From Exiguobacterium sp. Leaf196 (GTDB lineage Bacteria; Bacillota; Bacilli; Exiguobacteriales; Exiguobacteriaceae): DNA of 64,000 nucleotides. Position numbers and translations under genes: made by a program. The DNA lies in assembly GCF_001423965.1 (NCBI RefSeq), contig NZ_LMPV01000007.1:124001-188000 (forward strand), read 5' to 3'. The notes under the pieces are model-generated. The model was not told the origin of the DNA. It saw nothing but the letters and a program-made list of their open reading frames with translations, and did not search any database. This document shows positions 8,454 through 62,492 of this stretch, in pieces. Within the stretch, counting starts at the first letter, position 1, and each line of letters starts with the position of its first letter.

Positions 8454-9962
8454 TTATTTCCGCTCAATCTCAACATACTTATACGAAATATCCGTTCCGA
8501 CATTGTGTCGGGCAAGATTCTTCACTTCCGTGTTTTGCAAGAAGGCATTCTTCCGTTGGTAGACCGGCGAGATTGCTTGATCGTCGAGCAACACGCTTTC
8601 CGCTTTACTGAGTAAGGCAAGACGCTTGTCTTGATCGAGTTCACTTTCAGCCTGTTTCAAGAGACGGTCATACTGTTTGTTCGAATAATCCATCATGTTG
8701 AACGGGTTACCCGTCGTGAACAAGTTCAGGTATGTCGTTGCATCCTGATAATCTGGTGCCCAGCTAGCGAGTGACAGATCGTAGTCCCCTCGTCCTTCAC
8801 GGGCGAGGCGTTCTTTCTTCGGAAGTGACAACAATTTGACGTCGACGTTCTGCTTCTTCAACGCGCCTTGGATGTACTCACCGATTTTTTTTGAGACATC
8901 GTCGTCTTCAATCAACATCGTCAACTCAAGATTTTGCTTTGCCAGCACTTTGTTTGCCGCTGTAACATCGTACGACGATTCGATTTGACGCGCACTATCG
9001 TATTTCGGATCAAGTTCTTGCGGTACGATGTAGTCAGCAGGGAGTGATCCGTTTCCGAGCAACGTTTCCGTCATCGCTTTTTTATCATATGCCGCATCAA
9101 TCGCTTGGCGTGTCTGTTTATCTTTTAAGGCATCTGTCTTTTCGTTCATCCGGATAAAGAACATCCGCGAATCGCTGAACGTGTTGTACTCTTTTTGATC
9201 CTTGTACGTCACGACGTTCTCCGAGTTGAGTGGCGCGACATCCAGTTCACCGGACTCGAACAAGTTGATCGCAAGCATCGGATCCTTGATGATCTTGACG
9301 TCGACTTCATCGATCTTGACGTTTTTCCGGTCTGCGTACTCAGCATTCTTCGCGAGCGTGTAGCCTTGCTCGGCTTGATATTTCTTGAACGTGAACGGTC
9401 CGTTGTAGACGTTCGTCTTTGGATCCGTTCCGAACTGATCGCCTTCAGCTTTGACGATATCTTCCCGGACCGGCATATAGGTGCCGAACGTCGTCATGCT
9501 GAGGAAGTACGGTGTCGGACGTTTTAATTCAATTCGGAGTGTCTCGTCATCGACCGCTGTCGTTTTTTCGACCGGCTCAAGCAAGTAAGCGAACGGTGAG
9601 TTCGTTTTGACGACACGCTCGAACGCATAACGGAAGTTCTCCGCTGTGACGGGCTTTCCGTCTGACCACTTTGCATTCGGATCAAGCTTGAACGTGTAGA
9701 CTTTTCCGTCCTCTGATACGCTATGCGATTTTGCTGCTGCCGGAACAAGTTCGTTCTTCTCATCAAAACGATAGAGTCCTTCGTAGATTTGATTGAAGAT
9801 GTTTGACGTGATGGCATCTGACGGGTCAACCGACAAGAGATCATAACTTTCCATCGTATGCAGGACCTTCTTGTCCGCTTGTTTATCTTCTGCTGGTTCT
9901 GTCGTTGCACATCCTGCGAGTAAAACTGCCGTACTCGCCGCTGCGATCAATGTCTTTTTCAT
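8454..9962 (-). CDS. Peptide-binding lipoprotein (OppA family)
   Basis: A solute-binding lipoprotein of 502 residues for an ABC importer. The signal peptide ends in a lipobox LLAGC (Cys18). The SBP_bac_5 family signature is clear (ITSNIFNQIYEGLYRFDEKN; YTFKLDPNAKWSDGKPVTAENFRYA). AGGAGG lies 8 bases before the ATG. No permease or ATPase gene lies beside it, so it must work with a transporter encoded elsewhere. It is preceded by a T-box riboswitch, so expression should rise when one particular tRNA is uncharged. It may therefore scavenge peptides or an amino acid under starvation. Confidence 0.88.
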   Translation of the reverse strand: MKKTLIAAASTAVLLAGCATTEPAEDKQADKKVLHTMESYDLLSVDPSDAITSNIFNQIYEGLYRFDEKNELVPAAAKSHSVSEDGKVYTFKLDPNAKWSDGKPVTAENFRYAFERVVKTNSPFAYLLEPVEKTTAVDDETLRIELKRPTPYFLSMTTFGTYMPVREDIVKAEGDQFGTDPKTNVYNGPFTFKKYQAEQGYTLAKNAEYADRKNVKIDEVDVKIIKDPMLAINLFESGELDVAPLNSENVVTYKDQKEYNTFSDSRMFFIRMNEKTDALKDKQTRQAIDAAYDKKAMTETLLGNGSLPADYIVPQELDPKYDSARQIESSYDVTAANKVLAKQNLELTMLIEDDDVSKKIGEYIQGALKKQNVDVKLLSLPKKERLAREGRGDYDLSLASWAPDYQDATTYLNLFTTGNPFNMMDYSNKQYDRLLKQAESELDQDKRLALLSKAESVLLDDQAISPVYQRKNAFLQNTEVKNLARHNVGTDISYKYVEIERK

Positions 9963-10021: not shown

Positions 10022-10297
10022 AAAAGGCGTCCTCTACGCATAGCTAACAGCTAATGCATAGAGGACGCCTGTATCCGCGCGGTGCCACCTCTGATTGAGA
10101 CGAAAATCGTCTCCACTTGTCGCTGGTCCAACAACCAGCTAGCCCGGTAACGGGGGCAACCGTCCTGTCTACTCGAAGGTTCAACAGGCTCTCAGCGGTC
10201 CATTCTCGTTCAGCTTACCGTGTCAGGCTCTCACCATTCCTGACTCGCTTGGTCGGCAGTGTTGACGATACTTACTCCGCGTCGTCGATGTAATTGA
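10022..10297 (-). ncRNA. T-box riboswitch upstream of the OppA-type gene
   Basis: On the minus strand the leader has a Stem I, the canonical T-box GAGGTGGCACCGCG (about 10091-10078), and a terminator (10070-10022) whose stem pairs GGCGTCCTCTATGCAT with ATGCGTAGAGGACGCC before TTTT. In Stem I, TCGT/ACGA and GCGG/CCGC pairs enclose a specifier loop with AGTA on the 5' side and GAA (10205-10203) on the 3' side. The next codon is UGG (10202-10200), then A, so tryptophan is the best reading. GAC (Asp) is the alternative. The antiterminator bulge UGGC calls for a tRNA with discriminator G, which suits either. Confidence 0.92.
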
Positions 10298-10842: not shown

Positions 10843-10871
10843 AAAAAAAGAACGATCCGGAGACCGTTCTT
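10843..10871 (-). terminator. Terminator downstream of the GNAT gene and its 3' element
   Basis: A 7-bp stem AAGAACG / CGTTCTT with a 10-base loop, followed by TTTTTTT on the minus strand. It lies immediately after the structured element at 10874-11022, so that element is probably part of the GNAT gene's transcript. Confidence 0.7.
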
Positions 10872-10873
10872 CG

Positions 10874-11022
10874 ATGAGGCATCACACGTCCACTCGACTC
10901 CTACAGGAAAAAGCGCAGTCGCGCTGTCAGAGAAAAACAAGACCCGGCTCTGCGTCGAAGACGACAGTGCCGCGGCTTGTGTCTCGCCTGAGGAAAGCGA
11001 GTGGAAAAATCGTGATGCTCAT
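10874..11022 (-). repeat. Structured 3'-UTR element, copy A
   Basis: A 149-nt non-coding element, read on the minus strand, lying between the GNAT stop codon and its terminator. It has outer arms GCATCA/TGATGC and TCCA/TGGA, a hairpin CTCGC-TTTCCTCAG-GCGAG (11001-10983), a long hairpin (10980-10937), a small hairpin AGCGC-GACT-GCGCT, and the tail TTTTCCTGTAGGAGTCGA (10911-10894). The same order of parts, with an identical tail but different arm sequences, occurs after pepF (62289-62438). I recall similar CTTTCC...GGAGTC elements between genes in other Bacilli, but cannot verify this here. Confidence 0.7.
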
Positions 11023-62288: not shown

Positions 62289-62438
62289 GAACGTTTCTGT
62301 CATCCCCGCTTTCCACAGGCGGGTGATAAGACCCGGCACCTCGCATTTCATGTGGTCTGCCGGGTCTTATCTAGCCCTGAAGAAAACGAAAATCGTGCTT
62401 TCTTTTCCTGTAGGAGTCGAAGATGAACATTCACGTTC
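62289..62438 (+). repeat. Structured 3'-UTR element, copy B
   Basis: A 150-nt non-coding element between the pepF stop and terminator. Outer arms GAACG/CGTTC and TCATC/GATGA enclose the hairpin CCCGC-TTTCCACAG-GCGGG (62305-62323), the 13-bp perfect stem ATAAGACCCGGCA / TGCCGGGTCTTAT (62326-62370), the small hairpin ACGA/TCGT, and the tail TTTTCCTGTAGGAGTCGA (62403-62420). The same arrangement occurs on the minus strand at 10874-11022. Conserved pairing with changed sequence suggests an RNA or DNA structure under selection. No open reading frame is evident. Confidence 0.75.
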
Positions 62439-62453
62439 TCTATTTATCGAATG

Positions 62454-62492
62454 AAAAAAGGTGAGTTTCCAGTCCGGAAACTCACCTTTTTT
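62454..62492. terminator. Bidirectional terminator, pepF / GGDEF-EAL
   Basis: A perfect 17-bp stem AAAAAAGGTGAGTTTCC / GGAAACTCACCTTTTTT with a 5-base loop. Confidence 0.92.

What the first reader, a model, noticed from the sequence alone, without database searches (positions are those of the whole stretch)
62289..62438. Structured 150-nt 3'-UTR element, copy B
Between the pepF stop and its terminator lies a non-coding element with an outer two-part stem, a short hairpin with loop TTTCCACAG, a perfect 13-bp stem, a small hairpin and the tail TTTTCCTGTAGGAGTCGA. A second copy on the other strand (10874-11022) has the same order of parts and almost the same length. Arms that differ in sequence but still pair (for example CCCGC/GCGGG versus CTCGC/GCGAG, and GAACG/CGTTC versus GCATCA/TGATGC) look like covariation. 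I know similar CTTTCC...GGAGTC intergenic elements in other Bacilli only from memory. It could be an mRNA-stability element, a small RNA or a mobile repeat.
Basis: partly seen in the sequence, partly recalled or inferred. Interest (0 to 1): 0.8.

Follow-up and report, generated by a model that had tools for sequence, protein, structure and literature searches.

The report
Mobile-element leader hairpin at terminators
The folded 150-base element downstream of pepF is not private to that gene: it is a leftover copy of a repeat found across Bacilli that also forms the folded leader of IS1182-type jumping genes, which insert at transcription stop signals, and this probably explains where it sits, why it folds and why its arms differ between copies.

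Summary
Copy B (62289-62438, +) and copy A (10874-11022, -) fold far better than shuffles, and the genome holds about 20 related copies. 24 of 38 consensus pairs covary.

A model built without window-type copies finds exactly A and B in the window. It hits 84 of 301 Bacilli genomes and nothing in about 190 other Bacillota. It is not in Rfam.

The 3'-UTR-regulator reading is not supported. Copies vary between close relatives in presence, orientation and intactness, and never lie between divergent genes in Exiguobacterium. Recent insertions duplicate or replace intrinsic terminators.

The same element lies just upstream of, and in sense with, IS1182-family transposase genes in Exiguobacterium, its sister genus, Peribacillus, Kurthia and other Bacilli. 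IS1182 transposons are published to target terminator hairpins in both orientations.

Best reading: A and B are solo, end-less copies of an IS1182-associated structured module. The window copies have no recognisable transposon ends, so direct descent is inferred. The module's function is unknown; a cis-acting DNA or RNA hairpin for the transposon seems likeliest.

The parts
62289..62308 (+). P1, 5' arm of the outer stem (GAACGTTTCTGTCATCCCCG)
   Evidence: fold; 8 of the 9 P1 pairs change on both sides somewhere among 17 copies
62311..62319 (+). P2, 5' arm UUCCACAGG (conserved core CTTTCC..AGG); pairs with the 3' tail
   Evidence: terminal U.G wobble invariant in 17/17, 59/59 and 41/41 copies of the second alignment
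62321..62377 (+). P3 hairpin (GGGTGATAAGACCCGGCA..TGCCGGGTCTTATCTAGCCC)
   Evidence: fold, covariation
62381..62403 (+). P4 small hairpin, present in Exiguobacterium-type copies, absent from most Bacillales copies
   Evidence: 7 of 7 pairs covary; absent in A4
62407..62416 (+).
62418..62438 (+). P1, 3' arm of the outer stem
62454..62492 (+). intrinsic-terminator-like hairpin with flanking A and T runs, between the convergent genes pepF and a GGDEF/EAL-like gene
   Evidence: sequence; gene context
10874..11022 (-). copy A, same family, downstream of a GNAT-type acetyltransferase gene; P2 arms at 10995-10987 and 10907-10898, P3 10985-10930, P4 10925-10912
   Evidence: found by the independent model R2
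10849..10870 (-). intrinsic-terminator-like hairpin after copy A
   Evidence: sequence

Best explanation
The element is a solo copy of a Bacilli-specific structured non-coding module that belongs to IS1182-family insertion sequences. In autonomous copies the module lies between the left transposon end and the transposase gene, in sense with it. Short derivatives keep the ends and the module but lack the transposase. These transposons insert at transcription-terminator hairpins, either replacing the hairpin or duplicating it, in either orientation. This leaves modules mainly between convergent genes. Ends and interiors then decay, leaving solo modules such as A and B. Shown: family, structure, distribution, mobility of relatives, hairpin-targeted insertion, position and orientation within IS1182 transposons. 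Inferred: that A and B descend from such insertions, since they have no recognisable ends. Inferred and weaker: that the module works in cis for the transposon, as a DNA or RNA hairpin that the transposase or host factors recognise, or as an insulator of the transposase gene.
For: Family and structure. An independent model finds exactly A and B in the window; 84/301 Bacilli genomes and about 0/190 other Bacillota. Mobility: presence, absence, orientation and truncation differ at orthologous loci among relatives 97-99% identical in protein. Clean insertion: G001 locus with four empty orthologues; the terminator hairpin AACGGATTCGATGTACATCGAATCCGTT is on both sides of the insert; more such duplications. 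Hairpin replaced at G001:2413395. Location: 27 of 40 loci convergent, 0 divergent, against background 20 and 34 of 134. IS1182 link: transposases NF033551, E down to 5.8e-141; element in the G007 transposon at 84 bits, E = 7.9e-22, in Peribacillus at 103 bits upstream of annotated IS1182 transposases, Kurthia at 34 bits. In a draw of 30 IS1182 loci from 30 Bacilli genomes, 6 carry it just upstream, all in sense. Mostly palindromic, hairpin-sized direct repeats flank 9 of the 30. Published precedent: IS1272 and TnSha1 of the IS1182 family replace stem-loops, many of them terminators, in both orientations (PMC5678879; PMC4923244).
Against: None of the seven copies on the window's contig, A and B included, has recognisable IS1182 ends, and most Bacillales copies lack them too (83 of 116 with neither end). 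Most IS1182 transposons tested lack the element (24 of 30). Some genomes with many copies have no transposase hit (G001: 48 copies, 0 hits). The element occurs in transposons with two different kinds of ends, so modules may have been exchanged. No transposition was observed.
Confidence: 0.7

Rival explanations
1. The element is an independent mobile palindromic repeat with its own ends (for example GTTGATT..AATCAAC in Bacillales) that moves by another route, and IS1182 transposons picked it up several times.
For: 57% of Bacillales copies have GTTGATT and AATCAAC on both sides versus 0.7% at random places; most copies lack IS1182 ends; two kinds of IS1182 ends carry it.
Against: Inside IS1182 it is always just upstream of the transposase and in sense, which repeated capture would not give; GTTGATT..AATCAAC is also the outer stem inside the Peribacillus transposon. 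No transposase of its own is known; no Y1 transposase in this genome.
Confidence: 0.2
2. It is a 3'-UTR regulatory RNA (mRNA stabiliser, processed sRNA or attenuator) of pepF and of the other genes it follows.
For: Strong RNA fold and covariation, position between stop codon and terminator, invariant U.G wobble.
Against: Opposite orientation at the same locus in close relatives, absence in others; no orientation preference in tandem contexts, 8 against 5; variable pairs show G.U 57 against A.C 43, so no clear preference for folding of the sense RNA strand.
Confidence: 0.07
3. It is a REP-like element mobilised by a Y1 (RAYT) transposase.
For: Imperfect hairpin with a bulged base, many intergenic copies.
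Against: No PF01797 match in this genome, while 5 of 14 control genomes match.
Confidence: 0.01

Closest known systems
IS1272 / TnSha1 (IS1182 family), stem-loop-replacing transposition (PMC5678879, PMC4923244)
   Same: Transposase family (NF033551 here), terminator hairpins as targets, either orientation at one terminator, replacement of the target hairpin.
   Different: The passages read describe no conserved structured module; the CAGACTGTAGAC-type transposons here duplicate the whole hairpin instead of deleting it (a pathway that PMC5678879 only drew as a model).
MITEs (short non-autonomous derivatives of insertion sequences)
   Same: No coding capacity, many copies; the GAGGCTGACTC and CAGATTGTAGAC units have matched ends and, for the latter, target duplications.
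   Different: Solo copies such as A and B lack recognisable ends; the conserved part is an internal folded module rather than the ends.
Bhal-1 repeat family of Bacillus halodurans (PMC2267715)
   Same: Intergenic stem-loop repeat, 74 nt, 36 copies, in a Bacillales genome.
   Different: Its sequence is not given in the text that I could read, so identity is untested.
IS110/IS1111 bridge RNA or seekRNA
   Same: A structured non-coding segment carried by an insertion sequence.
   Different: Different transposase chemistry (IS1182 is DDE); no evidence that the element is transcribed or guides anything.

Membership tests
IS1182-family MITE (strict sense) | terminal inverted repeats matching an autonomous IS1182 | tested here: not met
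   0 of 7 copies on the window's contig, including A and B; met by the GAGGCTGACTC and CAGATTGTAGAC units elsewhere in the genus
IS1182-family MITE (strict sense) | target duplication or clean replacement at the insertion site | tested here: inconclusive
   Clear for relatives; for A and B the flanks differ too much between species
IS1182-associated structured module (this work) | match to a model built without window-type copies | tested here: met
   26.8 and 26.4 bits, E about 1e-6, the only two hits in the window
IS1182-associated structured module (this work) | same module inside autonomous IS1182 transposons, upstream and sense | tested here: met
REP/RAYT | Y1 transposase in the genome | tested here: not met
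Any Rfam 15 family | score at or above the gathering threshold | tested here: not met
   below-threshold hits are chance-level or concern the terminator
Bhal-1 | sequence identity with the B. halodurans repeat | not testable with these tools
   sequence not in the readable text
3'-UTR regulatory RNA or sRNA | transcribed and stable RNA | not testable with these tools
   no RNA-seq available

The most novel reading that the evidence does not exclude
The module is a functional nucleic-acid part of IS1182 transposition: a folded DNA or RNA hairpin that the DDE transposase uses to recognise hairpin targets, that is, a structure-guided rather than sequence-guided target choice.
Probability: 0.08. 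Interest if true: 0.85.

Novelty: new variant of a known kind. Interest (0 to 1): 0.5.

Why it matters
An abundant, unnamed family of folded intergenic repeats across Bacilli, sometimes annotated as small 'hypothetical proteins', now has a likely source. It links many palindromes in Bacilli intergenic regions to a transposon family that lives in terminators, gives a way to date and orient these insertions, and makes the role of a conserved folded leader in a DDE transposon directly testable. It also warns that covarying, RNA-like structure at gene 3' ends need not mean a regulatory RNA.

Tried and rejected
Rfam membership: rejected. REP/RAYT: rejected, no Y1 transposase. Exact gapped pattern on the genome found nothing because the pattern was too strict. 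Phages: no match in 50,697 records with a Bacillales copy as query. Plasmids with the Exiguobacterium unit as query: none. Literature search by sequence string gave no relevant paper; searches for IS1182 with MITE or noncoding RNA found no description of the element. G.U versus A.C as a test of which strand folds was inconclusive (57 against 43 in variable pairs; P1 leans to G.U, P3 and P4 do not). Unpaired half elements with a coding region between them were sought and not resolved that way; the link came instead from the transposase search.

Full report
Observation. Copy B (62289-62438, +) lies between the pepF stop (62251) and an intrinsic-terminator-like hairpin (about 62460-62492). Copy A (10874-11022, -) follows a GNAT-type acetyltransferase gene. 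Both fold with energies no shuffle reached, z = -7.6 and -5.8. Neither matches an Rfam family at its threshold.

Family in this genome. A tail pattern and then a covariance model found about 18 full copies plus shortened ones in the 2.98 Mb genome. On 17 copies the consensus is an outer stem P1, a small internal loop, a sequence-conserved stem P2 (UUCC.CAGG with CCUG.AGGAG), and a junction with two hairpins, P3 and P4. 92% of cells pair, 24 of 38 pairs change on both sides, and the covariation score of 0.464 compares with 0.201 in shuffles and at most 0.169 in slid controls.

Family across Bacilli. All 17 congeners searched carry 13 to 79 or more copies (79 was the scoring cap), and copies occur in the sister genus and beyond. 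A pattern scan of named genomes gave at least 119 loci in Peribacillus, Lysinibacillus, Oceanobacillus, Rossellomorea, Sporosarcina and others. A second model, R2, built only from other Bacilli, the sister genus and one divergent Exiguobacterium copy, hits 84 of 301 Bacilli genomes and no genome outside the class among about 190. In the window R2 finds exactly copies A and B. The U.G wobble at the outer end of P2 is invariant in 41 of 41 and 59 of 59 sequences.

It moves, or has moved. In about 300 kb compared among five close genomes, the loci differ in presence, orientation and intactness. At the pepF locus the element is in sense in two species, reversed in two and absent in others; at the GNAT locus it is in sense in some and reversed in others. 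In Exiguobacterium 27 of 40 loci are in convergent and none in divergent intergenic regions, against 20 and 34 of 134 in the background; in tandem contexts there is no orientation preference, 8 against 5 (an earlier, partly non-independent sample agrees). The gene calls are simple ORF calls. In other Bacillales the copies show no such bias.

Insertion at terminators. In G001 a composite unit of about 365 nt sits between two copies of a terminator hairpin that is single in G000, G002, G004 and G005. Further units are flanked by duplicated hairpins of 22 to 32 nt, for example AAGCGGACCGCTAAGTCCGCTT. At G001:2413395 another unit, with ends GAGGCTGACTC, replaced a simple hairpin that is present in three relatives. 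In Priestia plasmids a unit of about 340 nt with ends GAGGCTGGGACA fills whole convergent gaps.

The source. A search for DUF772 transposases returned proteins that NCBIfam calls IS1182 family, E = 5.8e-141, 1.2e-116 and 3.4e-123, above the curated cut-off. Copies in G008 carry an element just before the transposase gene and lie between duplicated terminator hairpins. The G007 transposon (about 2.05 kb) has the order: end GAGGGTGACTC, full window-type element with P4 (84 bits, E = 7.9e-22), transposase, hairpin, inverted end. The short units in this genome have the same order without the transposase.

Generality. In Peribacillus plasmids the element (103 and 101.6 bits) lies upstream of annotated IS1182 transposases; in plasmid pB the transposon is flanked by the hairpin AACAGACATAGGTATATGTCTGTT on both sides. 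A Kurthia IS1182 has it at 34 bits. Several other IS1182 transposons lack it. Among 30 IS1182 loci from 30 Bacilli genomes, 6 have it just upstream of the transposase, always in sense. Nine of the 30 have 18-31 nt, mostly palindromic, direct repeats directly next to CAG..TGTAGAC-like ends.

Precedent. IS1272 and TnSha1, of the IS1182 family, replace stem-loops, many of them terminators, and hit one terminator in both orientations (PMC5678879; PMC4923244). PMC5678879 also draws a pathway that would duplicate the whole stem-loop, as seen here for the CAGACTGTAGAC type.

Limits. A and B have no recognisable ends, so their origin as remnants is inferred. Most Bacillales copies have no IS1182 ends either, and many share the outer stem GTTGATT..AATCAAC, so an independent repeat captured by IS1182 remains possible. 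Some genomes rich in copies lack the transposase. The function of the module is open: G.U and A.C departures are about equally common in variable pairs (57 and 43), which gives no clear sign that the sense RNA is what is selected, while the invariant wobble and bulge point to some recognised structure. I lean to a cis-acting hairpin of the transposon, with modest confidence.

Noticed in passing
window 10058-10294 (-): T-box leader (RF00230, 103.6 bits) upstream of a peptide-binding lipoprotein gene (8454-9962, -), suggesting amino-acid control of a peptide transporter.
   Followed up: no
L450, L452, L454, L456, L459, L460, L461, L464, L471: IS1182 transposons with CAG..TGTAGAC ends in many Bacilli are flanked by direct repeats that are mostly whole terminator-like palindromes of 18-31 nt: hairpin-duplicating insertion as a general mode.
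   Followed up: partly
L073 (G000:C10:46185-46296) and L241 1835-1948: An element of this genome is 91% identical, outer stem included, to one in Bacillus sp. MCCB 382, suggesting horizontal transfer.
   Followed up: partly
L346 2431-2619, L347 2482-2619: Public annotation places small 'hypothetical proteins' over the element; these ORFs look spurious.
   Followed up: no
L239 4671-5117: Three copies in tandem at 185-nt spacing in Peribacillus frigoritolerans.
   Followed up: no
L218 532-599 and 7758-7904; L207 6961-7028: Bacillaceae-1 RNA (RF01690) copies near elements of this family, once about 140 nt downstream on the same strand.
   Followed up: no
L024 and L398: Remnants in which only the outer stem is left as a simple hairpin: old insertions may become plain terminators.
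   Followed up: partly
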